Shown here: positions 2,284 through 25,788 of the stretch, in pieces | Layout: the number at the start of each line of letters is the position of its first letter | Numbering within the stretch: the stretch's first letter is position 1 | Source: Sedimenticola sp. | Lineage (GTDB): Bacteria > Pseudomonadota > Gammaproteobacteria > Chromatiales > Chromatiaceae | Length of the DNA: 64,000 bases | Direction: 5' to 3' | Assembly: GCA_026994195.1 (NCBI GenBank) | Contig: JALWRH010000027.1 | Span: forward strand, 10,212-74,211 | Notes under the pieces: model-generated | The model's input: only the letters and a program-made list of their open reading frames with translations | Database searches by the model: none | What the model was told of the DNA's origin: nothing | Position numbers and translations under genes: made by a program

Positions 2284-4005
2284 TTAACCATCAACAATAG
2301 CTAAAGATTCACAGAATGCCTTTCGTAATTCAGTAATTTGTTCAGACGTAATCGTTTTATCTTCAAGAGCCTTCAATATCTGCAAAGGCTTCTGATCATC
2401 ACGTCCTGGCAGCGTGAGGTCCAAGTGTTTTTCAAGACATTTGTTGAACTCAAATGGATCTGCCAATGTAAATTCATTTTTTCTATCGCGGATGAGTTGA
2501 TTAATCGCTGCATGTTCATTCTTCTCGTCATCATTGTCGAACATAACCCCGTGGTAGATTCCGTAAGTCTTGAACAAACTAAGAAAGCGGTGAAAGTTAT
2601 ACTTTCCTAGCGCGTCAACGACTAGAACTCTCTCTTTTGCCAAATCATGCCAATCGTTTGCCAATAAATAATTGAAAAGTGCTTTTTCGGTAGCCCCTTC
2701 GACAAGAATGACCTTGTCAGCAAAAAACATCGATGCCCGGTCAGAATCCAGCCAAAGCTGGAAACGAAACCTTTCATGCTGACTAGCTATTTCATCCCCT
2801 GGCGCATTATCGATTAACTGCTGAGCTCTGTTCTTCCTTTCCTGACCAATACCAGGGTCATTGACATATGCTTTGATCACAGAAAGGAAGTCACCTCCCG
2901 CTTTAATTAAATCATCCACTCCAGATTGCGTTAGCTGATATATCCTCGAAACACCTTCATTTTTTTGAATGCGGCAAATCTGACAGAGCTCATCACTGCT
3001 TTTGCTAACGAATACAGGCGAGTGCGATGAGATGATAACCTGCTGCTCAGACTCATTACCTAGCCTACGCAGGTGATAAGCCATGTTCTCCTGTTGGGCG
3101 GGATGCAAAAATGCCTCAGGTTCTTCAAAAAGGAGCAATGTGAAATCAGGGTTGAATTCCTTCTTTTTTACTTCCTTCTCGTCTTGAAAACTTGGTGCGA
3201 TGCGAATCAACTCATAGATCAAAGAGCGCTGAAAACCATGCCCAAAGCGATCTAGATCAAATGCTGTATCTCCAAGCATTAGATCCACGAAAGCATACTT
3301 AACGAGTGATTTAGATATTTCCTCTGGGGATATGGGATTCACCGATAAGTCAATCTTCACATTCCACTGGCTTAATGCAGAGTTGATCGGTTGAGAAATC
3401 TCGGTAAGAAATCCATCGTCCAACCTCGCTTCAGTATTGAGGGCATCGAACGCCTGGCCAAGTTGACTATAGGCTGGACTTTTTGATACAACCTTCTTCA
3501 ACATGAAATTGAGCATGTTACGCAGAGGCGAAGGCCCCGTCGTTTTCATTTGCTCACTGGGTGTTGTCAGAGCAGGAATATAAACAACGCTTCCGCATTT
3601 GGCAGTCCCTATGTTCTTTGCGCCATAGAATAAGTCTGCCTCTTCATTTCCATTCACGATAGCATAAATATTGCTCTGCTTAGCCTTTACCTTCTTACCC
3701 TTAAAATATCGTTTCAAGATAATACTCTTTTCCTGTACGCCCTCCTTGTATTTATCTGCTAAATTATTCCATTCATCTTCAGAAAGCTTGAAGGATATTT
3801 CAACCCATGAATCTTGATCTGTAGTTCCCTTTTTCGGAAAATCATTATCAGTCCATTTAGTGTCCTCGTAAAAACAACGAATAGCATTAACAACATTGCT
3901 TTTACCTGCGTTATTTGCGCCAACCAACACCAAAAAGTCATATACTTCAATTTCAGCATCAACAATTGACCTAAAATTGTGAATTTTTATTTTCGTAATC
4001 TTCAT
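2284..4005 (-). CDS. OLD-family ATP-dependent endonuclease (AAA + TOPRIM)
   Basis: A protein of 573 residues. The ABC-type ATPase half has Walker A GANNAGKS (29-36), a signature-like segment FGHGFQRS (254-261), Walker B LLLFEEPE (290-297) and the H-loop SSHSP (326-330). The C-terminal half is a TOPRIM nuclease with VEG at 435-437 (E436) and the acidic cluster FDNDD at 489-493. This is the domain order of OLD and of GajA, the nuclease of the Gabija phage-defence system. It starts at 4005, directly against the Res stop codon at 4006, so it is the last gene of the type III restriction operon. The DNA is visibly AT-richer than the core genome to the right. A role in phage defence is inferred from family and context. 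Confidence 0.85.
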   Translation of the reverse strand: MKITKIKIHNFRSIVDAEIEVYDFLVLVGANNAGKSNVVNAIRCFYEDTKWTDNDFPKKGTTDQDSWVEISFKLSEDEWNNLADKYKEGVQEKSIILKRYFKGKKVKAKQSNIYAIVNGNEEADLFYGAKNIGTAKCGSVVYIPALTTPSEQMKTTGPSPLRNMLNFMLKKVVSKSPAYSQLGQAFDALNTEARLDDGFLTEISQPINSALSQWNVKIDLSVNPISPEEISKSLVKYAFVDLMLGDTAFDLDRFGHGFQRSLIYELIRIAPSFQDEKEVKKKEFNPDFTLLLFEEPEAFLHPAQQENMAYHLRRLGNESEQQVIISSHSPVFVSKSSDELCQICRIQKNEGVSRIYQLTQSGVDDLIKAGGDFLSVIKAYVNDPGIGQERKNRAQQLIDNAPGDEIASQHERFRFQLWLDSDRASMFFADKVILVEGATEKALFNYLLANDWHDLAKERVLVVDALGKYNFHRFLSLFKTYGIYHGVMFDNDDEKNEHAAINQLIRDRKNEFTLADPFEFNKCLEKHLDLTLPGRDDQKPLQILKALEDKTITSEQITELRKAFCESLAIVDG

Positions 4006-7151: not shown

Positions 7152-9023
7152 CTAGATTGACTTCACGTCAGTTGCAGGGGAAAGCTGGCGGAAGATCTGA
7201 TCGACGTTGATCTTGACCGCATCAGAAACAAAGCCATTGTCGCGAAACACCACGCGCATAGGCTCGTACCTGGCGAGCTCCTTAACAAAATCCTCCGTAA
7301 TGCCCGTATCAAAGCAGGCAATCAGGTCATAAGGTTCTTCATTGACGAAGAAAACCGTTTTCTCTTGTATCGTCTCACTGCGAATGGGAAGCGTCAGGTC
7401 AACGCCCCAGTCCACCAGAACCTGGAATAGCAGGTCTTCTGGATTGTCACGCCCTGGCTTAATGTTATCGACGGTGGACAGCAGGTCTTCTTGCTTCACC
7501 TCACCCGGCGTGTAATATACATCCGCCATATTGGAGGTATCGACCTTGAGGACGCGGAAGCCAATATCTTTTTTCCAGTCTTTGTGACATTCACCATCCA
7601 GGATCTTCTTTCCTGCGCGGCGGATGCGTTCCTTACCGATTTCAGCAATAGTTTTGTAGCCCGTCTTGAACGCCTCGGATTTATCATCGCATGGCTCGGG
7701 AATCTGCACCATAATAAAACTGCGGTTCCCACCATCCCTTTTATTTAGATTCATTACAGCATTTGCAGTAACAGATGAACCTGCAAAAAAGTCCAACACT
7801 ATTGATTGATCACTTGTTGCTTGCTCCACAAACAACTCAATAAGCTTAGATGGTTTTGGAAAATCAAATACCCCACCACCAAGTAACGCATTTACTTCCC
7901 GAGTTCCATCAGAAGTGGATACAGTCTGTATTACAGACGATATATTTTTGAAAATACTCACCATTTCATTAAGGAATAACTTTTGACGAGGCCTGCCGCT
8001 ATCTGAAGTCGGCCAAATGATTCTCCTTTCTGAAATTTTCTTGGCCATTGTGTTCGAGTCAAACCGCCAGCCTTTAGGTGGGCAGCCATAATTTATACCC
8101 GTATCTGGATCAATTAGGTCGTAATGAAGGTTTGGGCGCTTATCCTTAGTAGCCAGCCCAGTCATATCTGCACTTCGCCATGGCCCACGCGGATCATCAT
8201 CCGGATTCTTAAATTTATTTAAGTCCTTCTCTGCACCTCTCAAGGAAACATCCCCAACATTCTTATAACATGCTATATACTCGTGATCTGTTGACAATCC
8301 GGTCTTTGCCCTAGTATCTTCACTAACTCTAGATTTCCAAACGAAGAACCCCACAAAATTATCCCCGCCAAACAGTTCATCACAAATCTTTCTTAGGTTA
8401 TGTGCTTCACCATCATCAATACTGATAAAGATAAACCCATCATCTGCCAGAATATTTCTTGCCAACTTTAGTCTTGCGTACATCATGGAAAGCCAGTCGG
8501 AGTGAAATCGACCATTTGATTCGGGATTCGCTACAAGTCGATTACCTTCTTCATCTTTCTGCTCCGATTCCAATAGATACTTTTTGGTTGATTCAGCAAA
8601 GTTATCAGCATATATAAAATCCTTCCCTGTGTTATAAGGTGGATCAATATAAATCATATTCACCTTACCTAGATACGTTTCCTGCAACAGCTTCAATGCC
8701 TCCAGATTATCACCCTCAATAAACAGGTTTTTCGTCGTATCAAAATTGACACTTTCCTCCCGACAGGGGCGAAGGGTTTTGGCAATCGGCGCATTTGCAG
8801 CCAAAAGTGCTTCCCGTTTTCCCGGCCAGTCCAGCCGGTAACGTTCTTGCGGACCTTCGACAATATGATCGCTGAGTTCCTGGCGAAGTTAATCAAAATC
8901 CACCGCATAGTGAAGATTGCCGTTTTCATCCTTCGCTTCTGTAACACAGTCAGGAAATAATTCGCGAATTTTTGCAATATTCTCGTCTGACAGGTCCGGG
9001 GAGTGCATTTTCAGTTTTTCCAT
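7152..9023 (-). pseudogene. Type III DNA methyltransferase Mod, interrupted by an in-frame stop
   Basis: The frame from ATG 9023 encodes 44 residues typical of a Mod N-terminus. It meets TAA at 8889-8891 in the context VDFD-stop-LRQEL, then continues in the same frame to 7152. The equivalent codon in relatives is, as I recall, a glutamine, so a single C-to-T change would explain it. The rest is whole: DPPY at about residues 127-130 of the restored protein and FFAGSS at about 412-417, the beta-class N6-adenine order. After the stop, the first usable start is TTG at 8804, which would drop 73 residues. Mod supplies target recognition for Res, so the system may be silenced. A sequencing error, readthrough or internal restart cannot be excluded. 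Confidence 0.8.
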
Positions 9024-9044: not shown

Positions 9045-10865
9045 TCATTCGTGTGACCCATCAATACGCTTGCCATTGATCAACCAGGTTTCTAAGGCCA
9101 GGTTTAGCAGGATCTTCTGTCTTGCTATAACCTGCGCCTTGCTCCATTTTGGGAACTGATATTTATATTGGTCCTTGAATTTATTGAGCTGGGTATTCTT
9201 GCCAATACTATACTCATGGTTCAGTAAGGCCGTAGTCAAAACATTAGACTTGTCATATTCATTCTGTTTCTGAGAAAACCAGTCCTGATTCATGTCATTG
9301 AAATTATTGATGGCCTGGTTGATCGTGCCTTCGAGCAGTGTCACATTACCAAGCATATATAACGTGGACTCATAATCTTCCTGGTCGTCAAACTCCTCAG
9401 AGATAACGCCATCCCTGGGTGTTTGTGGAAATACATGTTCGATTTGCAGGCTATTTATCAGCCCTAGGCCGAGTTCTGCAAAGCCGGATTTTCTTCGGAG
9501 GGTATTCTCCAGCTGCCCAAGTACATAGCGCTGCCTGTAAAGCGGATTGTAGTGATAGTGACGTAAATTAAGAAAGGTCTGTTTAAACTCCCCCACTAGC
9601 TTTTTGAGATATGGGAGAATCGTATCATTCACAACCTGAGCCAAATCATGCTCGGAAGCGGCCTCACGTAATTTCCCCGCCCAGTCTGAAAACAAGCGTT
9701 CGTTATTCTTGGCCTGAATACCGAGTGTGGAACTGTAGAAGAACAGGCTTTCGAGTTGACTTGCCAGATACTCAATCATTTCTTTAGAGCAATCTACTTT
9801 TAAAGCAAGTAACAAAACAAGGTGCTGGCGTGACTTGTATTTATTGATGAAGCCAATTCGAGTTACCGCAGGATAATCACCACCATCTTTTTGGTACATA
9901 GTTGCCTTCGCAAGCTTGCTATAGCGTTTGGACAGTTTTTCAAGTTCTGTTGCGAAACCAAGTGGATTAGCTTCATAAGCAATCGACTCTTTTCCTTCTG
10001 TTGAAATAATCCACTTGTAAATCTCGTCTTCACGGATGATGCCGTTGTAATATCGCGCCATAATAAAATAGCGCAGGAAACGAAGCTGATTCTGATCTTC
10101 TCCGCAAGCAGCCAGGTTAGCGCCAATGTTCTTCCACTTTTCTTTAATTTTCTGAAAATCTCTTTCCTGAGCCTGGCTAAATATCAAGTTCTTTACCAAA
10201 TCCATGGCATTGAGTCCTGCGCCACGCTGGTTAATTGTCTCAAATATTTTCAGAGCGCTGCTAAGATTCTCAGATTTAATGACAACAAGTTCAATTTTTG
10301 AAAGAAAGTATCGAATAAATGCAGTGAAGTTATCTGCGCCAATATTCAGATAACCTTGCATATGTTCTTTTATCGTTTCGTAGGCTTCCTGCATTCGCCT
10401 GATAGATGTCGTCTGTTCATCAGTATATGGCTTAGAAAGGATTAGATTGCTAAGAAAGTCTTTGCTTTCCTCGTACTGAAGGTCAAGTCGGATCTGGGTT
10501 TCATCTGTTTCAATATCAAAATCAGAAAGCCACTCATTAATGGTTTTAAAATAACTTTGCTGTTTAGCATCCAGTTCCATGGGCTGTAGCAAATCACGAA
10601 ATGCACAAAGCGTAAGAACAATAGTGGTTAAGCGCTGCTGGCCATCGATAACATCATATCTGCCTTTATTCTCGACAATAATAATAGAACCAATAAAATA
10701 GCTTTTTTGCTCAGATTGTCCTTCCTCAAATTCATTGTCAATATCAACTAGGAACTGCTCAACCTGATCATCAACTTTCCAGACATACTCTCGCTGGTAG
10801 TCTGGCACCATAAAAAAATAGTCTTTCAGTTTTGCTATGCTGTGAACATCAGCTTTAATTTCCAT
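9045..10865 (-). CDS. GmrSD-like DUF262/DUF1524 endonuclease
   Basis: A protein of 606 residues. The N-terminal DUF262 (GmrS-like, ParB-related) domain has VPDYQREYVW near residues 20-29 and DGQQRLTT at 74-81, a nucleotide-binding and hydrolysis motif. The C-terminal DUF1524 (GmrD-like) part has EHVFPQ at 476-481 and GNVTLLEG at 506-513, matching the His-Me-type nuclease fold. GmrSD proteins are type IV enzymes that cut modified DNA. It sits 21 bases upstream of mod and downstream of the UvrD-like helicase, on the same strand. Its place inside a type III operon suggests it adds an attack on modified DNA. The substrate is not shown by sequence. Confidence 0.85.
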   Translation of the reverse strand: MEIKADVHSIAKLKDYFFMVPDYQREYVWKVDDQVEQFLVDIDNEFEEGQSEQKSYFIGSIIIVENKGRYDVIDGQQRLTTIVLTLCAFRDLLQPMELDAKQQSYFKTINEWLSDFDIETDETQIRLDLQYEESKDFLSNLILSKPYTDEQTTSIRRMQEAYETIKEHMQGYLNIGADNFTAFIRYFLSKIELVVIKSENLSSALKIFETINQRGAGLNAMDLVKNLIFSQAQERDFQKIKEKWKNIGANLAACGEDQNQLRFLRYFIMARYYNGIIREDEIYKWIISTEGKESIAYEANPLGFATELEKLSKRYSKLAKATMYQKDGGDYPAVTRIGFINKYKSRQHLVLLLALKVDCSKEMIEYLASQLESLFFYSSTLGIQAKNNERLFSDWAGKLREAASEHDLAQVVNDTILPYLKKLVGEFKQTFLNLRHYHYNPLYRQRYVLGQLENTLRRKSGFAELGLGLINSLQIEHVFPQTPRDGVISEEFDDQEDYESTLYMLGNVTLLEGTINQAINNFNDMNQDWFSQKQNEYDKSNVLTTALLNHEYSIGKNTQLNKFKDQYKYQFPKWSKAQVIARQKILLNLALETWLINGKRIDGSHE

Positions 10866-10904: not shown

Positions 10905-13598
10905 TCATTTATGCCAAGTCTCACCAAAATGGGAACGCAAGCTCTCTATTCTTTCCGGCAACGTGTTATTGCAGGTTACCCCCAAGTAAGTTGCCGCCCG
11001 AGTGATGCCCACGTAGAGGTATTTATCGAACAGATCAGGGTGTTGTTTGGCAAGCTGGTCAATGCCGACAAAGAAAACCGCCTCGAATTCCAGCCCCTTG
11101 ATGTGCTGTAGATCAAACACTCGCACATTGCTTTCTTGCCCTACTGCCTGCCCCTCATGACAGGCTATGACCTGAATATTGTGCTCAACCAGGGCATCAT
11201 TCAGATCCTCTGCCAATATTGCTACCTTGTCTTCCGAATTGACAAAAATGGCGATCGACGGCAGTTGGCCGACAAAGCGCTCGATTTCTTGAATACGTTC
11301 CGCAAGCCAGTTGATAACAATCGAAGCATCCTCCGCATGTTCGAGTAAAGCAGGCGGCACCCCGCTGCTATCTACATGTGCGGGCAAGCTGACTTTCTGT
11401 TCGGTGCCGCCCACTGCGTCGATCATGGCGCGCGCCAGCTCGTTGAGCTGCTTACTTTGCCGATAGGAAACATTGATCTCCCTGATGTCAAAATCTGCGA
11501 ATACCCATTTCAACTCTTCTGTCGAGCGCGTACCCCAAGTGGTCAAGCGCTGGTTGAAGTCACCACAGGCGAAGAACGATCGCAGGCGTGGATGGGCCAG
11601 CGCAGCCATGCAGGCCAGTTGAATCGGTGAGAAGTCCGTCGCCTCATCCACCAGGACCTGGTTACGGTAATGCCCTAGCATCGGCTGGAGCGGTGACCAC
11701 AGTGGGTTATCGATGTCACGCAGGACATTGGGCCTGCCAAGCAGGTCGCCAGCAGCGCGCAAGATGGCCAGCAACACCACGTCGAGCTCTAGTGGATGAA
11801 TATCGCGCGCCTCGAAGCCCTCCTTGCAATACCACAGGCCTTCTTTCTGGCGTTCTCGACGGAATACACGGTAGCGCCGGGGAATACCAGCGAGGTAGCG
11901 CCTAACGGGGTTCACAAAGCGTCGGGCATGGGTTTGTACCAGAAGGCTGGCGCCAACTTCTGCGTGTTCTGACTCTGGTAGCCCACGTTCAGCCAGCCAT
12001 TCGATGATCTTGCCAGTGCGAGACGTTTTACCCGGCTTACGTTTTGTCACTGCGGTACGTGCCTGGGTCCGCGCAGCTTGCATATAGGCATTGAGCGCGG
12101 CGGCACGACCCGTACGTGGTATCTCGGCATCCTCTTCCTCGTCGGGATCGATATCGTCTTGCTCTTCACCCTCTGTAAGCTGGGCTTGTTGCAGGCTATC
12201 AATAAATTCTGCCAGCTCATCCAGAAATGAACGGTTGCGGTTGAGCTGGAGATTGAGCGCGGCCTTGATCTTGTTATCTGTGTTTTCCTTAAGGTTGGCG
12301 ACGAGTGCTTGCACCCTAGGTAACTCTGTAGCCAGCGAACCGAACATCGATGCCAGGGTTTGCTTGTTCGAACGGGCCAGGATTTCTTGCAGGCGCTCGC
12401 CGAGACGCTGAACTTCGGTATCCTCTGCTTCATAAAGCTGGGTCGCCGCAGCAAGCAGCTCCTGCATATAGGATTCGCGTTGCCACGCGTCGAAGTCGCC
12501 AAACCACTCAATGGGTTTTTCTAGCGCTGCCTCTTCCAAGCTCGGTAGCCCTTCTTTGAGGACAAAGGTACCACCACTTGACGCTGTTCTGAGTACGCCA
12601 AAAGTATTTCGGGCAAGCTCTCGGCGGTAGTCTTGCCAGGTTCTGATGCGAAGGTCCGAGGCGGGTACGCCCTCCCGCGCGAATGCCTCTTTGAGGTACT
12701 GTTTAAGCAACTCGGTGGGCGTGAACATCAGCCAACTGTTAGCATGTTCGACGCCGTGCCCGGTTCGTGTCGTCTCTACAAGATATTTCTCGTCTTCACC
12801 CAGAAACATGGGGTCGAGCTTCTGGCCAAGACGGCGAATCAGAGTCGTGGTCTTGCCGGTGCCGGGGGGGCCAAGTATCAATAAACGCTTGTCGAGAGGG
12901 AGACGGAAAATCTCATCCTGATACTGGTCAAGAACAGGTTGATCCCTGAGTCCCATCTTGGTGATTAGGCTGCGTCGAACACCGTCGATAATGTTGGCTT
13001 TTGCAGTCTCCTCAGCCAGCAATTGGTCCACTAAATCTTCTGTAACCTCTTCACCTGCTGCCTCGCTCAGTAGCGCTCGCATCGATTCGATGCTTAGGGG
13101 GCCAAATTCCTCTGCCTCTATTATCGAGTTGACAGAATCCCAACCACCGGCAAGCAAACTTGGCCGGAGTTGGGCGCGCCCCAGAACTTCAACAACAGTG
13201 CCATTAGGAAAGGTATATTCTGAACCGATTTCCAGTGAAGCTAGGCGCCCGACGGGTGCCCGGTAGCTGGCAAGATTGGAAATGCCAGATACGGGCGTGG
13301 TGCGGCAGATGTAGTAGGTCCGTGCTTCATCATTCTCATCCACGACCACTACACGGGCAATTGCAGGCTCGTTTGCCAAGATCTGATAACTGTCTCGATT
13401 TGCCTGGCTGACCCGATTCAGTGTGTCAACAGCTGAACCTGATGTCATTGTATTGATGCTCGCGAACACATCTGCTCCAGTCGCGGAGCCATCGTTAAGC
13501 TTTTTCCTGGCAGACGATGCAATGCTGTCGAGTTTGGCTAATACCTCGTCAGCTATCTGTTTGATATGTTGCCTGGATTCTGTACTGATTTCTGCCAT
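10905..13598 (-). CDS. UvrD-like SF1 helicase with long N-terminal extension
   Basis: A protein of 897 residues. The first 230 residues are an extension of unknown fold. The SF1 core then begins with Walker A GPPGTGKT (243-250). An acidic, low-complexity linker (around residues 485-505) interrupts the core. Walker B appears as VDEATDFSP in the second half, and motif VI as YVGITRA near the C-terminus, as in UvrD/Rep helicases. It lies between DUF4391 and the GmrSD-like gene in one operon. Gabija also pairs a UvrD-like helicase with an OLD nuclease, but those genes are adjacent, and this protein is larger. The extension may bind a partner. Confidence 0.85.
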   Translation of the reverse strand: MAEISTESRQHIKQIADEVLAKLDSIASSARKKLNDGSATGADVFASINTMTSGSAVDTLNRVSQANRDSYQILANEPAIARVVVVDENDEARTYYICRTTPVSGISNLASYRAPVGRLASLEIGSEYTFPNGTVVEVLGRAQLRPSLLAGGWDSVNSIIEAEEFGPLSIESMRALLSEAAGEEVTEDLVDQLLAEETAKANIIDGVRRSLITKMGLRDQPVLDQYQDEIFRLPLDKRLLILGPPGTGKTTTLIRRLGQKLDPMFLGEDEKYLVETTRTGHGVEHANSWLMFTPTELLKQYLKEAFAREGVPASDLRIRTWQDYRRELARNTFGVLRTASSGGTFVLKEGLPSLEEAALEKPIEWFGDFDAWQRESYMQELLAAATQLYEAEDTEVQRLGERLQEILARSNKQTLASMFGSLATELPRVQALVANLKENTDNKIKAALNLQLNRNRSFLDELAEFIDSLQQAQLTEGEEQDDIDPDEEEDAEIPRTGRAAALNAYMQAARTQARTAVTKRKPGKTSRTGKIIEWLAERGLPESEHAEVGASLLVQTHARRFVNPVRRYLAGIPRRYRVFRRERQKEGLWYCKEGFEARDIHPLELDVVLLAILRAAGDLLGRPNVLRDIDNPLWSPLQPMLGHYRNQVLVDEATDFSPIQLACMAALAHPRLRSFFACGDFNQRLTTWGTRSTEELKWVFADFDIREINVSYRQSKQLNELARAMIDAVGGTEQKVSLPAHVDSSGVPPALLEHAEDASIVINWLAERIQEIERFVGQLPSIAIFVNSEDKVAILAEDLNDALVEHNIQVIACHEGQAVGQESNVRVFDLQHIKGLEFEAVFFVGIDQLAKQHPDLFDKYLYVGITRAATYLGVTCNNTLPERIESLRSHFGETWHK

Positions 13599-13604
13599 TT
13601 TTCA

Positions 13605-14273
13605 TCACCCCCTTTTAACCAGCGCATCAAGTTCTGATTGCACCTGCCGTAATGTGGCGTTGATTGCCACTTTTCGGTTGAATTGCTTTTCTTTGGCCAG
13701 GCGCGCCTTGATACGTTCTGCTTCACGCTGTTTTGCCCGAATTGCTTCCATACGCTCAACACGCTTGACGATAGGTTCATCCGCTCCGGATTCTTCCGGG
13801 ATCAGTACATCCAGCAACCTCTCATAGAGTCGCCCAAGATTGAGCGCCTGAGGCAGAGGTTTTCTTTGGTTATCCTCAGATTCCCATTCCGTGCTGAAAT
13901 ATTCGCTCACCACCCACTTTGAGCCATCTGCTTCGCTAGGCCGTTTATAGGCCGCAATGACTTTTCGTTTCCCATTATGTACAAGCTCGAAAGTGATCGG
14001 GTAAGGAATTGCCTTGTCGATAGCGCGCAATACATCCTCATTGATGTTCGCTACACGCAAAGTGATAGTGAAAATCTGAATTTCTGCTACGGACTTCGTT
14101 GCATCCAGATTGATCGTTTCCGGTGCGAGCTTGTATTGCCAGACAATCTGATCAACTTGATCTACGAATAGCTGGCGCAGTTTTGCCGAGGCATTTGCCT
14201 TCTCGTAAATCCTGGATTTCGGCAGCACTCTACCAAATGCGGCTGCTCTGGGGTAATCGAAGAATGCCGTCAT
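13605..14273 (-). CDS. DUF4391 domain protein
   Basis: A protein of 222 residues that I recognise as DUF4391 from its N-terminal block (FFDYPRAAAFGRVLPKSRIY) and general layout. The last 60 residues are charged and probably helical (repeated R, K, E, A). No catalytic motif is visible. Its start overlaps the SNF2-type helicase stop by 4 bases, and the UvrD-like gene follows 6 bases after its stop, so translation is probably coupled. DUF4391 proteins commonly sit beside helicases of this type, which suggests a structural or adaptor role. That role is inference. Confidence 0.75.
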   Translation of the reverse strand: MTAFFDYPRAAAFGRVLPKSRIYEKANASAKLRQLFVDQVDQIVWQYKLAPETINLDATKSVAEIQIFTITLRVANINEDVLRAIDKAIPYPITFELVHNGKRKVIAAYKRPSEADGSKWVVSEYFSTEWESEDNQRKPLPQALNLGRLYERLLDVLIPEESGADEPIVKRVERMEAIRAKQREAERIKARLAKEKQFNRKVAINATLRQVQSELDALVKRG

Positions 14274-17200
14274 GAGCGCTCCTCCTCAACGACCAGAAAC
14301 GCTATCAGTTCAAAATCGTCCAGCCCTGCTATCGTGTTAACAAGTGCTGTCGTCCGGCCTGCCGTGAACAAGCTGTCCAGGTCCTTTTCTTCCTTTACCT
14401 CGATCATTGAATGGATGGCCGTGCTCAAAAGTGCAGATTGTTGATCCATCTTGCGACCATCTTCTGTCCGCTCATTGAAAAGTCTGCAAATAGCTTCTAT
14501 TGGTTCCGCTCGCCCTTTACAGCTTGTGCGGACCAGATCAAGCAAGCGTTTCACCTCAGTGTGATCAGCGACGATCTCGCTGTCATTGGAGATATAAACC
14601 AGATAGTACGGATGTAGGCGGTTCTGTTGGTTAATGTTTACGCTATCGTGGATGTTTCGGAGCGCGAAAATCGTCCCTGGTGGTAGTCCCCGCTCTCGAT
14701 CGGCGGGCACGACCGCATGCAAGCCATTGGGCATGTTATCAAGGTCACCGTTGTCTTTTACATAGTTGAGAAGATCCATGCGAAAGTCATTGAGACCAAG
14801 ATCAGTTATGGAAACACCCGTTTTGACGTCCTCCAGTTCAATGACCTCTTCCTGTAAGCGCTTGAGCTGGTCTTTTCGGTACGCAATCTCACTGCTCTTG
14901 GCGGTCAGGACATTGTCATCACCTGTTGCCGTCACGTCGGCAATCATCATCCGGTTTTCTACACGCTCTTTGAGATTGATGTACTCATCCAGCGAAATGT
15001 CAGGCCAATAATTGACGAGCTGGATTTGCTCATTGGGCGAGCCGATACGGTCAATCCGGCCAAAACGCTGAATAATCCGTACCGGGTTCCAGTGAATATC
15101 GTAATTAATGAGGTAGTCGCAGTCCTGAAGGTTCTGCCCTTCGGATATGCAATCGGTGCCAATGAGCATATCAATCTCGCTATTATCATTTGGCATAATG
15201 AGATGCTTTTCTTTCGCACGCGGTGAGAAAAGCGTCAGGATGGATTGAAAGTCATAGGACTTCTTTAGCGTCGTTTTTGGCGCGTCCGATCCGGTGACTC
15301 TGGCCGTGTTTAGACCATTGCTGGACTGGAGTTCACTTGAAATATTGTTGTAGAGGTAATTCGCAGTATCGGCAAAGGCGGTAAAAATCAGGATTTTTCG
15401 ATTATCACAATTGATTGGCTTGGCTATCTTCTCGCGAATATGAGCTTTCAGGTGCTGAAGTTTGGCGTCATCCTCGGGCCTGATCATGTTCATTGAGGCA
15501 AGCAACGCATCAATGAGTTCCAGGTCACCTTTCAGATCGTGCTGCCAAGACTTTACGTCCATATCCGCCAGGCTGATCTGCACCTTTTTACCCACAGTGA
15601 AGTCACCCAGACCACTTAAATCCTCATCGTCAGGATCAAAACCTGAAGGCGTTGCAGTGAAATCAGAAATATTAGTTTTTCCACCAGCTCGCTCGAAATC
15701 AGCAATTGCGTCCAATGTTTTGGTGAGGTTCTCCTTAAGTGAACCCAGGGTGAGACGGAACGCTTCAACCGAGCTTTCAAGGCGCTTCAGTAGGTTTGTC
15801 GTCATTAGCGCCTGAAGACTGCGCTCACGATCCACCTGCTTGAGACGCCCTCTTCCGCCGCCTACCTCTGTATCATAAAGCGCCTCATATTTCGCAACGC
15901 GGCTAGGTAAGATGTAGCTGAGTGGTGCATAGACAGCGAGTTTCAACAATGAGAGCTGGGCCACAATCTCATTGAGGCTCATGACATCTTCACGCGTTGT
16001 CAGCGGGCAATGGAATGAAAGTGGCTTCCGGCGCTCCGGAAACTTGCCGATTTCAGAGGTATCGTAAAATGTTTCGATATGTTTTCGGGAACGCGCAATG
16101 GTGACGCTGTCCAGAAGCTCGAAAAAGTCAAAATCGAGCATATTCAGGATTGCTGATGCGGTACGTTCCTCAGGTGGTAACCTTGACCACGCGTTGAAAG
16201 CGGTCTGCGCCTTGCGGAAAATTTCCTCAATACTAGTTGTAGTTTTCAGCTTCTTGTTAAGCGCTTCCGACTCGCCTTCGTAGGCAAGAGCAAGCTGGTT
16301 CCTGAGGTCTGTGAAACGATTATTTACAGGGGTGGCCGAAAGCATCAGTACCTTGGTTTTTACGCCCTCGCGGATGACCTGGTTCATAAGTTTCTGGTAC
16401 CGGGTTTCCTTATCCTTGTAAACGTCGTTATTGCGAAAATTGTGGGATTCATCAATCACGACAAGATCGTAGTTTCCCCAGTTGACCTTGGTTAAGTCCA
16501 TACCCATGGATTCACCTCGACTGCGAGAAAGATCGGTATGGAAAAGTAAGTCGTAGTTCAGGCGATCCCCTGCCAGTATGTTTGTCTTGTAATTACTACG
16601 ATAGGTCTGCCAGTTGTCGGCCAGTTTTTTAGGACATAGAACAAGAACAGCGCGGTTGCGAAGTTCGTAGTACTTTATGACCGCCAACGCGGTAAACGTT
16701 TTTCCCAGACCTACGCTATCTGCGAGTATGCACCCGTTAAACGTTTCCAGCTTATTGATGATTCCAGTGGCAGCATCACGTTGGAAATTGAATAATTTAT
16801 TCCAGACAACACTGTCCAGGTAGCCCGTTCGATCATTCGGAAGAACATCCTCGTCAATCTCTTCCAGGAATTCACTGAACAGGTTGTAGAGGATCAGGAA
16901 GTATATCCGCTCTGGAGAATTCTCCTTGTAGACTGACTCGATATGTAGGCATATAGCCTCTGTCACATCCTCCAGTTTTTCAGGGTCGGTCCATATTTGA
17001 TCAAATAGCTCAAGGTAGGTGTTTGTGTGTGGTGCACCGTCGAAACGATTCACAATATTTGAAACGGCATCGCCTTTCTGAAGGCCAAGATCGACGGCAG
17101 TAAATCCATTTACAGGCATATAAGCTATCTGCTCAGAACCATTTTCCACACAAATAAATTGCTGCATCGGTGCTTTGGTCTTATTCGAACGGAAGTTCGC

Positions 17201-17545
17201 TTTTTTGCGTATCCAGGCCGCACATTCGCGAGCAATGGCTCTTTGCGTAAGCTTGTTACGAAGCTGGATCTCAAACTCTGAGCCATAAAGACTGCGTTCA
17301 CGCTGCGACTTAGGAATAAAGAATTCCCGGCGCTCTTTCCTGAATTTGTCAGTCGCACCCTCAGGTACGAAAGTGGGGGCGGTAAAAATGAAATCCAGAC
17401 TATCGATTTTACCAAGTTCTTTTTTTAGCGCCTCATAGGCATAGATTGAAAAGCAGGAAGCAGCAATCTTGAGTTTCGATCCATTACCGAGCACGGAACG
17501 AAGATCATCGCCTAGCAAGGAATTGATGTTATCAATGATCCTCAC
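14270..17545 (-). CDS. SNF2/DEAD-type helicase with PLD-like N-terminal domain
   Basis: A protein of 1091 residues. The first 250 residues resemble the phospholipase D-like region found in this helicase family, but I see no HxK(x4)D motif, so a nuclease function is doubtful. The helicase core has motif I ADSVGLGKT (275-283), DESH (365-368) and LSATPVNN. In the second RecA domain it has ISEGQNLQDCDYLINYD followed by QRFGRIDRIG. Such proteins move along double-stranded DNA without unwinding it fully. It overlaps the HTH gene by 4 bases upstream and DUF4391 by 4 bases downstream, so it is the first large gene of the defence operon. Confidence 0.85.
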   Translation of the reverse strand: MRIIDNINSLLGDDLRSVLGNGSKLKIAASCFSIYAYEALKKELGKIDSLDFIFTAPTFVPEGATDKFRKERREFFIPKSQRERSLYGSEFEIQLRNKLTQRAIARECAAWIRKKANFRSNKTKAPMQQFICVENGSEQIAYMPVNGFTAVDLGLQKGDAVSNIVNRFDGAPHTNTYLELFDQIWTDPEKLEDVTEAICLHIESVYKENSPERIYFLILYNLFSEFLEEIDEDVLPNDRTGYLDSVVWNKLFNFQRDAATGIINKLETFNGCILADSVGLGKTFTALAVIKYYELRNRAVLVLCPKKLADNWQTYRSNYKTNILAGDRLNYDLLFHTDLSRSRGESMGMDLTKVNWGNYDLVVIDESHNFRNNDVYKDKETRYQKLMNQVIREGVKTKVLMLSATPVNNRFTDLRNQLALAYEGESEALNKKLKTTTSIEEIFRKAQTAFNAWSRLPPEERTASAILNMLDFDFFELLDSVTIARSRKHIETFYDTSEIGKFPERRKPLSFHCPLTTREDVMSLNEIVAQLSLLKLAVYAPLSYILPSRVAKYEALYDTEVGGGRGRLKQVDRERSLQALMTTNLLKRLESSVEAFRLTLGSLKENLTKTLDAIADFERAGGKTNISDFTATPSGFDPDDEDLSGLGDFTVGKKVQISLADMDVKSWQHDLKGDLELIDALLASMNMIRPEDDAKLQHLKAHIREKIAKPINCDNRKILIFTAFADTANYLYNNISSELQSSNGLNTARVTGSDAPKTTLKKSYDFQSILTLFSPRAKEKHLIMPNDNSEIDMLIGTDCISEGQNLQDCDYLINYDIHWNPVRIIQRFGRIDRIGSPNEQIQLVNYWPDISLDEYINLKERVENRMMIADVTATGDDNVLTAKSSEIAYRKDQLKRLQEEVIELEDVKTGVSITDLGLNDFRMDLLNYVKDNGDLDNMPNGLHAVVPADRERGLPPGTIFALRNIHDSVNINQQNRLHPYYLVYISNDSEIVADHTEVKRLLDLVRTSCKGRAEPIEAICRLFNERTEDGRKMDQQSALLSTAIHSMIEVKEEKDLDSLFTAGRTTALVNTIAGLDDFELIAFLVVEEERS

Positions 17546-19452: not shown

Positions 19453-20187
19453 CTAATGAAAATCCACCCCTTCCAAAAAATGCCCCCCATCGATAGTCAG
19501 CACATTGGTATAGATCTCGGTGCTGTCCATGGACTTGTGGCCGAGCAGCTGGCTGACGTACTTCAGCGGCCGCCCGTGCAGTAGCAGATGAATGGCGAAG
19601 CTGTGCCGAAACGTGTGGCTGGTGATGCGAAAATCCGCGCCCCCTACCCGCGCCACCAGGGCATGGATATGCCGGTTTACGGTCTGGCGGGCCATGGGAA
19701 AGATCCGCGCGGTTTTCCGGAAGTGTCCGGCATAGAGGTAACTTTGGATCCGGTCCTGCAGCAGCCGATCCAGAATGGGCACGTAGCGTTTGGGTGAACG
19801 CTGCAGGGCTTTTTTGCTCGGGCGCCCGGGGCGTTGTTTCAGGGTTTTCAGGATCACCCCGAAGTCGTAGCCGTCGTCGACAAAACTGCTCGGCGTGAGC
19901 GCCAGCACCTCCGAGATGCGTGCCCCGGTGGTCCACATAAGATCCAGGATGAGGCGGTAAGTGGGGTGTTTTTCTTCGTCCAGTAACGCCAGGATTTCGG
20001 GTTTGAGGAGATAGGCCGGCATGTCGTCAATCGTTGCCAGCACCGTGGGGCGCTTGGCAATGAGCCGATCCCAGTCAATCTGCACCGACTGGATGGGAAA
20101 GGTCGCCACCGGGGGCTCTTCGGGGTGAAAGAGCCCCCGCGGACGGGGTGCTGGAAATGCCGTGTCTGTGGGGAATTTTTGTACCAT
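19453..20187 (-). CDS. Tyrosine recombinase/integrase
   Basis: A protein of 244 residues with the catalytic set R90 (TGARISE), H191-x-x-R194 (HTFRHSF), H217 (LGHKS) and nucleophile Y226 (TEIYTNVL). It lacks the usual separate N-terminal arm-binding domain, so it is closer to short, core-binding-plus-catalytic recombinases. The ATG at 20187 is uncertain: the first 27 codons contain a strong hairpin (20106-20131), and a GTG near 20111 would give a shorter protein. It stands alone on the minus strand between the 331-residue gene and the Tn7-like genes. It could mobilise the left-hand island or be a relic. Confidence 0.85.
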   Translation of the reverse strand: MVQKFPTDTAFPAPRPRGLFHPEEPPVATFPIQSVQIDWDRLIAKRPTVLATIDDMPAYLLKPEILALLDEEKHPTYRLILDLMWTTGARISEVLALTPSSFVDDGYDFGVILKTLKQRPGRPSKKALQRSPKRYVPILDRLLQDRIQSYLYAGHFRKTARIFPMARQTVNRHIHALVARVGGADFRITSHTFRHSFAIHLLLHGRPLKYVSQLLGHKSMDSTEIYTNVLTIDGGHFLEGVDFH

Positions 20188-20722
20188 TTCAAATTATTTA
20201 TTTTGGTGCATTCTGGTGGGTATTTTTCGCTTGCTTTTTTCTCAGTGTAGACCATATCTCATGAAATACTAAGGGGTAGGTGCGATTGCACCAGAATACC
20301 TGTAAATGGTGCAATTCCGGCCCAATCACGCACAATCAAGAATCGACCCCTTGCAATATCGAAATTCCAGTCTAAATTTTGAAATGCGCACCCTCATGGT
20401 CGGAGGTCAACCACAGACCAAGCTCACTGCCAGTCCACCGGACTAAAGCTGAATAATCGTAAACCGCTCGCGCACGGCACAGGATACGCATCCCGCCCAG
20501 GGATGTAACACATGGCAGAAGACCTTGGGTCTTCACTCAAACACGCGTTTGGCAGGACGTGTGAACCTTGGTTTTTTTGGTGAGGTCGTCCTGTGCCTGT
20601 ATCTGATTTGAAAACCCCTGATCCATCCGGTGGCGGCCCCCTATGGGGCGGCTGCCATCCCCCAAATACTATTTCTTGTGGTCGTTTCAGACATCGGCGT
20701 GTTTCGCCCTGGGAGGACGTCA
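20188..20722. other. Intergenic region between the recombinase and tnsA
   Basis: This 535-base stretch has no convincing gene. Visible structure: inverted copies of CACCAGAAT (about 20209-20217 and 20290-20298), the palindrome GGTGC-GATT-GCACC near 20279-20292, and two hairpins, CATCCC/GGGATG near 20488-20504 and GAAGACC/GGTCTTC near 20518-20534. One transposon end is expected here, close to tnsA. TGT-starting candidates exist at 20246 and 20300, but neither matches the candidate end near 26210 well. Confidence 0.5.
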
Positions 20723-21418
20723 ATGAGCATCCATGAAGAAGCGTCATTCAATATGTTTGCGGCGCAGCAAGTGAAAATTAAGGGCGATGTGATGGAACCC
20801 ACGCAGCATGTGATCACCCGAAACTTTAAAACTGCTACGGATTTCTACACACGACACATGTTGAAACATCCTTTTTTGTCAGAATTTCACTCGTATAGCG
20901 AACTCCTGTATGCCGCCTTGTTGGAAGGCGATCCAACGGTGATCAGTTATGTACCCCAACCCTTCCACCTCCAAATTGGCAAACGACATTACAAGCCAGA
21001 CGTCTATGTTCTAAGGGAAAAACAACGGCGCCAAGTCATTGAGTTGAAACCGCGAGGCGAGATGGATGAAACACTTCGTGTGCCGCTTTTTCATTATTTC
21101 AAGAAACATCGTATCGATTTTGAGGTGCTGAGCAATGAAGCCGTGATGGAACGTCGAACCGAAGCTGAAAACTGGTTGGAAATCATTGAGGTCGTGGTCG
21201 AGGCGCGCCATCTCACCACAACCAAAGAAGAACAACAGGTATGGGAAAGGTTGTTCAAGAATCAGGGTTGCACCTTACGAGAAATTGTGGATTCTGGAAA
21301 TCGCGAAGGAACTTATTCGCTTGAAGTTGCCCTCTTTCGTTTACTGCATCAAGGCCATGTGGTCGCTGAACTTTCCGAAAAATCACTCGACTATGACACG
21401 GTGTTTCAATGCGCATAA
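20723..21418 (+). CDS. tnsA: TnsA-like transposon endonuclease
   Basis: A protein of 231 residues from ATG 20723, which has a GGGAGGA Shine-Dalgarno 5 bases upstream. Catalytic residues typical of the TnsA restriction-like fold are seen: E60 in SYSELLY, D93 in YKPDVYV and E107-x-K109 in IELKP. TnsA cuts the 5' strands so that Tn7-type elements move by cut-and-paste. The C-terminal third has a winged-helix look (TLREIVDSG, EVALFRLLHQGHV). The stop overlaps the tnsB start by 10 bases. Its presence distinguishes the element from Tn5053/Tn402-type replicative transposons. Confidence 0.85.
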   Translation: MSIHEEASFNMFAAQQVKIKGDVMEPTQHVITRNFKTATDFYTRHMLKHPFLSEFHSYSELLYAALLEGDPTVISYVPQPFHLQIGKRHYKPDVYVLREKQRRQVIELKPRGEMDETLRVPLFHYFKKHRIDFEVLSNEAVMERRTEAENWLEIIEVVVEARHLTTTKEEQQVWERLFKNQGCTLREIVDSGNREGTYSLEVALFRLLHQGHVVAELSEKSLDYDTVFQCA

Positions 21419-23286
21419 GCTGGCGTCAACAATTGCTGCTAAATCCCCACCTATGCGATTTCGACCAGTGGCCGCTAATTGCACTCGATCAGGTGCCCAA
21501 AAAAGATCAAAAGGATTTTTTGCGCAACAAAAAAATTGTTGCCAAAGTATTGGCAGGTCATCAGTTGACTCAAGTAGCAAAAGAACACAATCTCAGCGAA
21601 GGGCGAATCACACAAATCCTAGATCGTGCATTAGGTAGTGAAGAGGATGCGCCACCAGCGTTAACCGCAGGGCTTATTCCTGGTCGCATCATCGTCAAAA
21701 AACAACGCAAACAGCCCCTGCCAACCTTAACGGAAGAGCTTGGGGCAGGATGTGCATTTAGCGCCCTGCTGCGAGATGTTCCGGGGCTATTGAAAGGATT
21801 AGATGATGTACTTGTGCCCTACATCGCTGAAAAAAATTACGCGCAAAACATTAGCCCCCAAAGCTTTCATAGCGAATTCAAGCGTTTACTCAAAGAAGCC
21901 CACTGGCCGACCGACACCTATCCTTACACAACAGAAAACACGGCCTATGAATCTGTGCGTAGGTATCTACATGAAAGGATGAAAATATTAGTAAAAGAGA
22001 AAGATCAGACAAAGCGAAATCAAACAAGCCGAGTACCAAGGCCCTTTAAAAAAACATTTCGTGCGAAACGGGCAGTACAGATTGATGAGCACAAGTTGGA
22101 CTTGGGAAGCCGCATCAATCTGGTGCTCAATGATGAGTTGATTCCGCTGCGTATCGGGATGATCAGCGTCCTGGTCGCGATGGACGTGGACACGACAGCG
22201 ACACTGGGGTTTTGGCTCGCACAAACCAATGCGCCAAACCAGCAGGATTTGTTGGCGCTGATTGAAAACTGCATTACACCCTGGACACCGATGACGCTGC
22301 AAACACCGGGTTTTAGTTATGAACCAGGGGCTTGTTTTCCCAGCGCCTTGCCTGATACACCAATCAGCTTTGGCATGACGCACATGGATAATGCATGGAT
22401 TCACAGTGCCCTCTCAGTGACTCATATTTTATGCAATAAAATGGGCGGTACGGTAGCCCTGGGTCTGCCCGCCAATCCAAAAATCCGACACTTGATTGAA
22501 TCAGTATTCAATTTTATCAATAAGAATTTTAGTCATCGATTGCCTTCTACAACCGGATCATATCCGACTGATCCAAAAAGAGAATCACGCATTAATCGTA
22601 AAAAGCCGCCAATTATCACCTTTCGCACGGTGCTCGAAGCCCTGAGCATAATTCTGACTTCTTACAACATCATCACGCGAGCACAACTGGGCCACGCCAG
22701 TCCGTTATCATTGTTTCAACATCACTGCACAAACCACTACGTACGTTATTCCCCATCGATCATTACGAATCAATGGCAACCCTTCATCAATGAAAAAATC
22801 GTCGCTTTATGTTGGTATCGGCATGAGAACCGCGCACCGTTTGTCAATTTCGCGGGAACACGTTACTCAGGCCCAGGGTTATGGGACGCTGTAGAAAATC
22901 AAAAACTCATAAGAATTCGCTTTGATCGAAGAAGAATACGCACCATAGATGCGTATACTCTCGACGGTGTTTCCCTTGGGAAGTTATACGCTCCTGCATC
23001 CTGGCAACGGTTTGAGCATAGCCGTGCAACCCGTAAACTGTTGTTGAAACTGACAAGAAAAGATCGTCTATCTCGACAGGACCCTCTCTCAGACTATCTC
23101 CATCTTCTTCTAGAGAACAAAGATAACCCGAAAGATGCTTTGTCCCTCTTGAGAATTTTTACAGAGTTTACTGACTACCAGGATTCCGTATTAATTATGG
23201 ACGGAGTACTCAATGAACAACAATCCATCTCGAACCATTCAGCAACTGCTAGGTGGAACCGGAAAATGGCTAATCACCGGGAGTGA
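21409..23286 (+). CDS. tnsB: TnsB-like DDE transposase
   Basis: A protein of 625 residues with a retroviral-integrase-type catalytic core: D226 (VQIDEHKLD), D327 (THMDNAW) and E364 (HLIESVF). An N-terminal HTH-rich half (for example QVAKEHNLSEGRITQIL around residues 55-71) would bind the transposon ends. A Mu-transposase-like beta-barrel and a C-terminal tail follow the core. TnsB cuts and joins the 3' ends, with TnsA cutting the other strands. The ATG at 21409 lies inside the end of tnsA. The gene is AT-richer than the housekeeping DNA to the right. Confidence 0.87.
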   Translation: MRISWRQQLLLNPHLCDFDQWPLIALDQVPKKDQKDFLRNKKIVAKVLAGHQLTQVAKEHNLSEGRITQILDRALGSEEDAPPALTAGLIPGRIIVKKQRKQPLPTLTEELGAGCAFSALLRDVPGLLKGLDDVLVPYIAEKNYAQNISPQSFHSEFKRLLKEAHWPTDTYPYTTENTAYESVRRYLHERMKILVKEKDQTKRNQTSRVPRPFKKTFRAKRAVQIDEHKLDLGSRINLVLNDELIPLRIGMISVLVAMDVDTTATLGFWLAQTNAPNQQDLLALIENCITPWTPMTLQTPGFSYEPGACFPSALPDTPISFGMTHMDNAWIHSALSVTHILCNKMGGTVALGLPANPKIRHLIESVFNFINKNFSHRLPSTTGSYPTDPKRESRINRKKPPIITFRTVLEALSIILTSYNIITRAQLGHASPLSLFQHHCTNHYVRYSPSIITNQWQPFINEKIVALCWYRHENRAPFVNFAGTRYSGPGLWDAVENQKLIRIRFDRRRIRTIDAYTLDGVSLGKLYAPASWQRFEHSRATRKLLLKLTRKDRLSRQDPLSDYLHLLLENKDNPKDALSLLRIFTEFTDYQDSVLIMDGVLNEQQSISNHSATARWNRKMANHRE

Positions 23287-23289
23287 ACC

Positions 23290-24222
23290 ATGTCAAACAC
23301 CGCAGACTATTACGATCATCCTGTGTTGAACAACCAGGTATTTATCAATACACCCGCGATGCGAGATTTGGAGGAAGTTATTCACCAATGGATCTGGCAC
23401 GGAATTCCAGGAGGCATGGTGATAGGCGACAGTCGAATGGGAAAAAGTTGGGCCGCACGCAGCCTTGAACACAATCTATATTCGCGAGCAAAGGTCAACA
23501 TTCCAAGCAACTACATTTCCATTGGGGATCGTGACCAACCCACCATCGCGACAGTCTTTAAACGGTTATGTCATAGTGTCAATTTACGTGTAACAACACG
23601 CTCTACGGCTGATATGCTTTGTGATTCGTACCTGAATTATGTCAAGGATAGAGTGGTAAAAGCAGGGTGTCCACACTATGTGCTTATTGTTGATGAAGCA
23701 CAGCTTCTTTTGACCAGACAATTTAACGCCTTTATGGAGATCTTTAATGAATTAGACAAAGATAGAGGACTCGTTACATTGCATATTATATTTGTGTTCA
23801 GTAGACCAGAATGTCAAAGTCTCCTAGAAAAAATACGGTGTAAGTCATATACAAAGATTCGTGCGCGATTTTTAACCCAAAAATATGAATTTAGGGGGAT
23901 TACAACCGCTAGTCAAGTGAAATACTGCCTCTCTCAATACGATAGGTTGTGCTTTCCGAAAAATGGCCCTACCTACACCGAGTATTTTTTGCCCGAACAA
24001 TACAAGGAGGGGTGGCGTTTAGCTTGTTTGGCAAAGGAACTGTGGCAGTGCTTTTTGAATTACAAGCTCTCCTTAAAGTTGGATGCATGGGCGATGCAGT
24101 ATTTTATCTCTGCCGTAAATGCACTCTTGTGTGATTATTTGCCCCAGCTCGGCGTGGAAAACCTGTCTCAAGAGAAGATACAGGAATGTATCGCGCTGTC
24201 AGGCATCGAGTGGGTGGAATAA
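23290..24222 (+). CDS. tnsC: TnsC-like AAA+ regulator ATPase
   Basis: A protein of 310 residues with Walker A GDSRMGKS (46-53) and Walker B VLIVDEAQ (131-138), the TnsC/TniB-type AAA+ pattern. TnsC forms filaments on DNA and links the target selector TniQ to the TnsAB transposase. The start is 3 bases after the tnsB stop. Its own stop, TAA at 24220-24222, is followed at once by the GTG start of tniQ. The length is shorter than Tn7 TnsC and nearer to TnsC/TniB of compact elements. Confidence 0.85.
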   Translation: MSNTADYYDHPVLNNQVFINTPAMRDLEEVIHQWIWHGIPGGMVIGDSRMGKSWAARSLEHNLYSRAKVNIPSNYISIGDRDQPTIATVFKRLCHSVNLRVTTRSTADMLCDSYLNYVKDRVVKAGCPHYVLIVDEAQLLLTRQFNAFMEIFNELDKDRGLVTLHIIFVFSRPECQSLLEKIRCKSYTKIRARFLTQKYEFRGITTASQVKYCLSQYDRLCFPKNGPTYTEYFLPEQYKEGWRLACLAKELWQCFLNYKLSLKLDAWAMQYFISAVNALLCDYLPQLGVENLSQEKIQECIALSGIEWVE

Positions 24223-25788
24223 GTGGATCCCTTCCACATAAATGTCGGCCATTGGCTGAAATACCCTTACGAAAGCGATTACAGCATGTGGCGTCGCTGT
24301 CTCGTGGTCAATCCAGGCGTACCTTTATACGCCATCCAGTTACAGTTAAGAATGATGTTTCCAGACTTAAAATCTCCCACTCAACGTCTACAACAGCTGC
24401 AGTTTGATCCGCCATCTATATTTGATAGAGTTATTTTGTTTGATGATCATTCATATCAATGCCCGGAATGCGCAAGGAGTCTTTATCATTCAGAGCTGTA
24501 TTCTCTACCTTGGCTGGTAAAATGCCCTATTCATGAGATTGATTTAGTGAGCCACTGCCCGGCCTGCCATAAACCATGGCCAGATATCGATGAACTGGCA
24601 AGACGAGACTGTCGAGTATGTGGGAGATTTTCACTGTATGGAGATATCGATGGTGATATTGAGATAATCCACCGCGAAGAGTTTCAAGCAATCGCGGATA
24701 TTTATACATTCATCGAGGATGAAGCGTCTGACACATGCCCTTGCCATCTTGTCGATCGACAACCCTATACGCTATATGGATTGGCATGGAACCACTGGTG
24801 GGAAACCCCATCTCTGGGTTCTAAATATTTTCCTTCTTATCATGTAGGTTTGACAGATAACTCAACAAATCATGAGACCCTAAAGCGACTTCACATTCAG
24901 CTAACCAAGCTGTCGGTTAAAACGTCATCAGTGTTACGTAGCGATGGTCGTCCTGGTACACGCCCCATAAAAGAACGCTTAAGGGATCAATACAATGTCA
25001 TGCGCCAAATCGTAAACTGGATCGGAGAGAAGACGTCTCGGAATCACCTTCTTCACATCTCCAGTTATCGCCACCTGTATGCCTCGAATGTGCTTGGCGG
25101 CCCTACATTTTGTCCATATTGCATGGCACTTAGCTTGTGGTTTTTTTACTCCTCCTGCGACGTCTATGCAAGAAACAAGAGTGAAAAATTCAACGATTAT
25201 CCATTTTTAGTACCGATCGAAGCCCGCCCCCCATATATCTATGACATAGCCATAGATATAGAATCCCCACACGGATATTGGGCCTCCCATGTGCCAACCG
25301 ATGGATTTTCTTCATGGTTTTACCGCAGGGGGCTGGAAGTTCTCTATATTTCACTCCTGAAGATTTCATTTGAGCTTGCACTTTACTCGAGCAATCCAAA
25401 CCAGATATTCGTTGGCGCTCAAAGTTCTATTCTCGATAATGAACCAACCGAAAAATATTGTTCTTACACGATTAAGAATGGAAAACTCTTGTTTTTTTAT
25501 GAACACGAACATCCTTTAGAATTGATCACTCCAAAGCAATTACCGCACATCGAGTCACAGTGCAAACGATTTCAAATGTATCTCTATGGCCTAAGGGAAA
25601 CTATATTTAAGTACCAGGAGCAAATCTTGATTAATGAATTTCAATACCAATCGTTCCTTAGACTGCACAGGAGCTTTTCGGCTTTCTTGAATCGATGCCA
25701 AAATTTCGACAACAGGGAAAGATCAGGCATTGTATGGACTGTCGACCCCGAAGAATTATTGAACTGTGCTGCAGGTAAGTTATTATGA
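24223..25788 (+). CDS. tniQ: TniQ/TnsD-family target selector
   Basis: A protein of 521 residues. The N-terminal TniQ domain has paired zinc-binding motifs: CPEC (80-83), CPIH (101-104), CPAC (112-115) and C130-x2-C133. The C-terminal 380 residues, with a further CPYC, would read a specific DNA site, as TnsD does at attTn7. Translation starts at GTG 24223, right after the tnsC stop, so the two are coupled. No cas genes are nearby, so this is not a CRISPR-associated element. glmS is absent from the window, so the target site is unknown. Confidence 0.82.
   Translation: MDPFHINVGHWLKYPYESDYSMWRRCLVVNPGVPLYAIQLQLRMMFPDLKSPTQRLQQLQFDPPSIFDRVILFDDHSYQCPECARSLYHSELYSLPWLVKCPIHEIDLVSHCPACHKPWPDIDELARRDCRVCGRFSLYGDIDGDIEIIHREEFQAIADIYTFIEDEASDTCPCHLVDRQPYTLYGLAWNHWWETPSLGSKYFPSYHVGLTDNSTNHETLKRLHIQLTKLSVKTSSVLRSDGRPGTRPIKERLRDQYNVMRQIVNWIGEKTSRNHLLHISSYRHLYASNVLGGPTFCPYCMALSLWFFYSSCDVYARNKSEKFNDYPFLVPIEARPPYIYDIAIDIESPHGYWASHVPTDGFSSWFYRRGLEVLYISLLKISFELALYSSNPNQIFVGAQSSILDNEPTEKYCSYTIKNGKLLFFYEHEHPLELITPKQLPHIESQCKRFQMYLYGLRETIFKYQEQILINEFQYQSFLRLHRSFSAFLNRCQNFDNRERSGIVWTVDPEELLNCAAGKLL

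What the first reader, a model, noticed from the sequence alone, without database searches (positions are those of the whole stretch)
8889..8891. In-frame stop codon silences the type III Mod gene
The frame from ATG 9023 to 7152 is otherwise whole and carries DPPY and FFAGSS. A TAA sits at codon 45, in VDFD-stop-LRQEL, where a glutamine codon would need one C-to-T change. Res and the other six genes look intact. Loss of Mod would disable recognition, so the operon could be disarmed without losing the nucleases; alternatively, readthrough or a downstream TTG start could make a shorter Mod.
Basis: partly seen in the sequence, partly recalled or inferred. Interest (0 to 1): 0.7.

Follow-up and report, generated by a model that had tools for sequence, protein, structure and literature searches.

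The report
Nonsense mutation in type III mod
The DNA-marking gene of a large bacterial defence operon carries one real premature stop codon that most likely switches off that part of the defence; this is an ordinary, apparently recent gene inactivation of a kind already recorded in other bacteria.

Summary
The TAA at 8889-8891 (minus strand) is really there, at codon 45 of an otherwise open 623-codon type III Mod frame. Every relative examined has a sense codon there, mostly glutamine; the nearest have CAA or CAG. So it is a derived nonsense mutation, not a conserved or programmed stop. The rest of the frame shows no decay, so the change is recent or an assembly error. No Mod paralogue and no tRNA with a UAA anticodon was found. 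The stop lies in the N-terminal domain, which in EcoP15I forms part of the Mod dimer interface; the first NTG codon after it (TTG, codon 74) would lose that domain but keep all catalytic motifs. Mod is required for type III restriction and stabilises Res in EcoP1/EcoP15, so the most likely state is r-m- for the type III arm. The other operon genes have open frames and may still act. Comparable breaks occur in 6 of 78 related mod genes and 3 of 66 res genes, with no significant excess in mod, so selective disarming is not supported. Premature stops in mod are already recorded. The case is ordinary. Open: sequencing error versus true mutation, and whether a shorter Mod is made.

The parts
8889..8891 (-). 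premature TAA, codon 45 of mod
   Evidence: sense codon (mostly Q or L) in all relatives
7152..9023 (-). mod, type III N6-adenine methyltransferase frame (623 codons with the stop read through)
   Evidence: PADLOC MTase_III; PF01555; EcoP15I Mod
8838..8987 (-). N-terminal domain of Mod (residues 13-62), equivalent of the EcoP15I dimer-interface NTD; the stop lies in its helix 43-51
8802..8804 (-). TTG at codon 74, first NTG start codon (ATG/GTG/TTG) in frame after the stop; weak GGGAAG upstream
8634..8645 (-). motif IV DPPY (residues 127-130)
   Evidence: invariant
7773..7790 (-). motif I FFAGSS (residues 412-417)
7842..8378 (-). variable region holding the target recognition domain (about residues 216-394); closest to L009 while the rest of the operon is closest to L012
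4006..7134 (-). res, open frame; own Shine-Dalgarno-like GGGGAGG at 7147-7141
9045..10865 (-). GmrSD-like gene (DUF262/GmrSD_C) directly upstream of mod
10905..13598 (-). UvrD-like helicase
13605..14273 (-). DUF4391 protein
   Evidence: PF14335, E 8e-61
14270..17545 (-). SNF2-type helicase (PADLOC HKD+Snf2), first gene of the operon
2284..4005 (-). OLD-family ATPase/TOPRIM; ends in TAA
843..2105 (-). SbcD/Mre11-like phosphoesterase; ends in TAA
3..824 (-). N-terminal part of an SbcC-like ATPase that continues outside the window (L155 7535-11035; 10-base N run at 10202-10211)

Best explanation
A single, recent nonsense mutation (most likely CAA to TAA) at codon 45 inactivates mod in an otherwise intact type III restriction-modification operon. 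Translation ends after 44 residues, inside the N-terminal domain. Without Mod there is no site recognition, no methylation and no active, stable Res, so the type III arm is r-m- and the missing methylation is harmless to the cell. The neighbouring helicase, GmrSD, OLD and SbcCD-like genes keep open frames and may work on their own. Shown here: the stop, its derived nature, the intact frame after it, the absence of another PF01555 methylase and the absence of a suppressor among called tRNAs. Inferred: loss of protein, r-m- phenotype, recency.
For: TAA confirmed. All relatives have sense codons at the position: 53 Q and 22 L of 87 rows, no stop; the nearest are CAA or CAG. Position 45 is flanked by residues invariant in 36 Mods (D42, D44, L46, Q48, E49, L50), so the region is constrained. 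Rest of Mod undecayed: 3 of 160 positions invariant in relatives are changed, against 2-14 of 159-171 in nine relatives. No other PF01555 methylase in the genome. No TTA-anticodon tRNA among 36 called. TAA ends OLD and SbcD of the same operon. Restriction needs both Mod and Res (PMC3498834); mutagenesis of EcoP1 gave only r-m- or r-m+ mutants, and Mod positively regulates Res amount (PMC3874151). The EcoP15I NTD forms part of the Mod2 interface (PMC4490356), and the window's residues 18-66 align to it.
Against: One draft assembly only (126 contigs); no reads, no second isolate. TTG 8804 could start a protein with all catalytic motifs. The absence of decay is also what a sequencing error would show.
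Confidence: 0.72

Rival explanations
1. Sequencing or assembly error, or a minor variant in the sequenced sample: the real mod is intact and the system works.
For: Single draft assembly with an N run nearby; the frame after the stop looks fully maintained.
Against: A clean substitution in unique sequence, not a homopolymer indel; all other operon genes and the neighbouring core genes have open frames.
Confidence: 0.13
2. A shorter Mod is made from TTG 8804 (codon 74), by weak initiation or reinitiation 84 bases after the stop. It lacks the N-terminal dimer domain but holds the MTase, TRD and C-terminal domains, and may methylate weakly or not at all.
For: All motifs lie after codon 74; the fold match to EcoP15I Mod covers model residues 78-623; GGGAAG stands five bases before the TTG; no frame decay.
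Against: TTG is a weak start; the lost domain is strongly conserved and lies at the dimer interface in EcoP15I. No relative examined was seen to start there.
Confidence: 0.11
3. Readthrough of the UAA by a suppressor or near-cognate tRNA gives a little full-length Mod.
For: The frame after the stop is open and conserved; a glutamine tRNA (ttg) exists.
Against: No TTA-anticodon tRNA among 36 called (one 29-bit match near a contig end, C45, was not called); UAA is a normal stop in this operon; the stop is found in no relative.
Confidence: 0.04

Closest known systems
EcoP15I / EcoP1 type III R-M (mod, res)
   Same: beta-class N6-adenine Mod with NTD, MTase, TRD and CTD; Res directly downstream with helicase and endonuclease domains
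   Different: here mod carries a nonsense codon, and the pair sits in a nine-gene operon with SNF2, DUF4391, UvrD, GmrSD, OLD and SbcCD-like genes
Neisseria meningitidis modB1 with a premature stop (ST-32 strains, PMC2667262)
   Same: type III mod inactivated by a point mutation that makes a stop
   Different: stop after the DPP motif there, in the N-terminal domain here; mod genes of that species also phase-vary by repeats, and no repeat was seen here
M.MmyCI of Mycoplasma mycoides (PMC3498834)
   Same: translation of mod ends early at a TAA and the strain lacks the activity
   Different: there caused by a switchable AG repeat; here a substitution in unique sequence
SNF2-DUF4391-Mod-Res operons, as on E. 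coli plasmid pJH51-3
   Same: same core order SNF2, DUF4391, Mod, Res
   Different: those mod genes are mostly intact; GmrSD between UvrD and Mod was seen only in the window

Membership tests
Type III restriction-modification system | Mod of the beta N6-adenine class with DPPY before and FxGxx after the TRD | tested here: met
   met by the frame, not by the predicted 44-residue product
Type III restriction-modification system | Res with helicase (ResIII) and C-terminal endonuclease domain, adjacent to mod | tested here: met
   PF04851 and PF19778; REase_III over residues 1-1035
Type III restriction-modification system | mod translatable as one full-length frame (needed for a working system) | tested here: not met
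   TAA at codon 45; so it is filed as an inactivated member by descent, not as a working system
Type III restriction-modification system | methylation and ATP-dependent cleavage at an asymmetric site | not testable with these tools
   no methylome or enzyme data
Phase-variable type III mod (phasevarion) | simple sequence repeat in mod that changes the frame | tested here: not met
   in-frame substitution; no repeat in the sequence read around codon 45 or the mod start
Programmed stop-codon recoding | stop conserved at the same position in relatives | tested here: not met
   no stop at this position in any of 87 relative rows
Programmed stop-codon recoding | a tRNA that reads the stop codon | tested here: inconclusive
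   none among 36 called tRNAs, but the draft assembly may lack some tRNA genes

The most novel reading that the evidence does not exclude
The strain makes a 550-residue Mod without the N-terminal dimer domain that still methylates or recognises DNA, so the operon runs with an altered, perhaps monomeric, Mod. This would test whether the NTD part of the Mod2 dimer is needed for type III function.
Probability: 0.06. Interest if true: 0.45.

Novelty: new member of a known kind. Interest (0 to 1): 0.2.

Why it matters
It shows in one genome that a type III operon can lose Mod while Res and the neighbours keep open frames, as expected if Res is inactive without Mod. It also gives a caution: the operon would be called an active type III system by profile search, although its methylase is probably dead. 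Beyond that it is ordinary gene loss.

Tried and rejected
Programmed or conserved stop: rejected, no relative has it. Alternative genetic code: rejected, TAA ends OLD and SbcD in the same operon. Second Mod that could serve Res: none found with PF01555 or with the Mod protein. A repeat-driven switch: none seen. Excess of mod breaks over res breaks in relatives: not significant; two Res genes first flagged as broken (L061, L071) were only their natural ends. A suspected compensated frameshift in SNF2 residues 316-352: rejected, an in-frame divergent patch. Population check for the stop: no exact DNA match in viral contigs, no plasmid DNA covering 80% of the query, no close homologue in the genus. 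The invariance of MEKLKMHS in the alignment is partly a search artefact, because that peptide was one of the search seeds.

Full report
Observation. The minus strand reads TAA at 8891-8889. The frame from ATG 9023 is open for 44 codons, stops, and is then open for another 578 codons to TAG at 7154-7152. A run of 578 open codons has a chance of about 5e-11 at window composition. Profile search places the part after the stop in the type III methyltransferases: PADLOC PDLC03634 matches residues 2-550 of the TTG-started frame to profile positions 71-621, so about 70 family residues lie before it.

Derived, not conserved. A scan of one genome per species gave 80 loci with relatives of this Mod. At codon 45 the 87 aligned relative rows have Q (53), L (22) and a few others, never a stop. 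The nearest relatives have CAA (L012, L029) or CAG (L009, L068). Residues on both sides are invariant in 36 Mods: D42, D44, L46, Q48, E49 and L50. The stop is therefore a mutation in a constrained region. The invariance of the first eight residues is partly a product of the search seed.

Recent, or an error. I compared the window with nine relatives outside the TRD. Of 160 Mod positions invariant in the relatives, 3 are changed in the window; each relative, left out in turn, changes 2-14 of 159-171. So the frame after the stop has not decayed. This fits a recent mutation and also fits an assembly error. No reads were available. The genome is a draft of 126 contigs with 99.98% completeness.

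What could rescue it. PF01555 finds no other methylase of this kind in the genome. Of 37 tRNA matches, ARAGORN and none has a TTA anticodon; one 29-bit match near a contig end was not called. TAA ends OLD and SbcD in the same operon, so the codon is an ordinary stop here. The first ATG, GTG or TTG codon in frame after the stop is TTG 8804, codon 74, with GGGAAG five bases before it.

What would be lost. In EcoP15I each Mod has an NTD (aa 14-60), an MTase domain, a TRD and a CTD. The NTD helices intertwine and form part of the Mod2 interface (PMC4490356). Window residues 18-66 align with this part, and the predicted model places the stop in helix 43-51 (NTD confidence only moderate, pLDDT about 70-78). 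The fold match to EcoP15I Mod covers model residues 78-623. A TTG-started protein would thus lack the NTD and keep catalysis, TRD and CTD. Whether such a protein is made or works was not tested.

Consequence. The review PMC3874151 reports that mutagenesis of EcoP1 lysogens gave only r-m- or r-m+ phenotypes, and that Mod raises the amount of Res in the cell, proposed to be through folding and protection from proteolysis. PMC3498834 states that restriction needs both subunits. Res here has its own strong GGGGAGG site, so it may still be translated, but would be inactive. Rho-dependent polarity on res and the genes after it is possible and untested. The most likely state is r-m- for the type III arm (inference).

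Is Mod lost preferentially? Among related loci with the whole gene on the contig, mod is broken in 6 of 78 and res in 3 of 66 after two false flags were removed; the difference is not significant (p = 0.51). Many of these loci come from metagenome-assembled genomes, so some breaks may be errors. A Sulfitobacter plasmid has an IS256 element inside mod. Premature stops or point mutations in mod are recorded in N. meningitidis modB1 (PMC2667262). So the event is of a known kind.

Setting. The operon is SNF2, DUF4391, UvrD, GmrSD, Mod, Res, OLD, SbcD, SbcC. SNF2, DUF4391, Mod and Res recur together in most of the 80 loci and on E. coli plasmids. The only paper found in the library naming DUF4391 does so once. 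The Mod TRD is 69% identical to L009 but 34% to L012, while SNF2, DUF4391 and Res are closest to L012, which suggests exchange of the TRD.

Verdict. The most likely reading is simple inactivation of mod by a recent nonsense mutation (0.72). Rivals are an assembly error (0.13), a shorter Mod from TTG 8804 (0.11) and readthrough (0.04). Interest is low because nothing here departs from known behaviour of type III systems.

Noticed in passing
window 20630-25788 (+): Four genes in Tn7-like order: a TnsA-like endonuclease (weak PF08722), a likely TnsB-like transposase, a TniB/TnsC-like ATPase (PF13401, PF05621) and a likely TnsD/TniQ-like protein; the second and fourth had no Pfam match and are named by order and length only.
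   Followed up: partly
window 19453-20187 (-) and L155 6508-7278 (+): Tyrosine integrases (PF00589) stand on both sides of the defence operon, which suggests an inserted island.
   Followed up: partly
window 7842-8378: The Mod TRD is closest to Aminobacter (L009, 69%), while SNF2, DUF4391 and Res are closest to Halioglobus (L012, 74-86%): likely TRD exchange between lineages.
   Followed up: partly
window 9045-10865: A GmrSD-like gene lies between UvrD and mod; none of the related loci examined was seen to have it in this place.
   Followed up: partly
SNF2, residues 316-352 (about window 16490-16600): An in-frame patch differs from relatives at ten otherwise invariant positions, perhaps a recombined segment.
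   Followed up: partly
L050 246-2237: A Synergistaceae mod has its own in-frame TAG at codon 14, and its res is frameshifted.
   Followed up: partly
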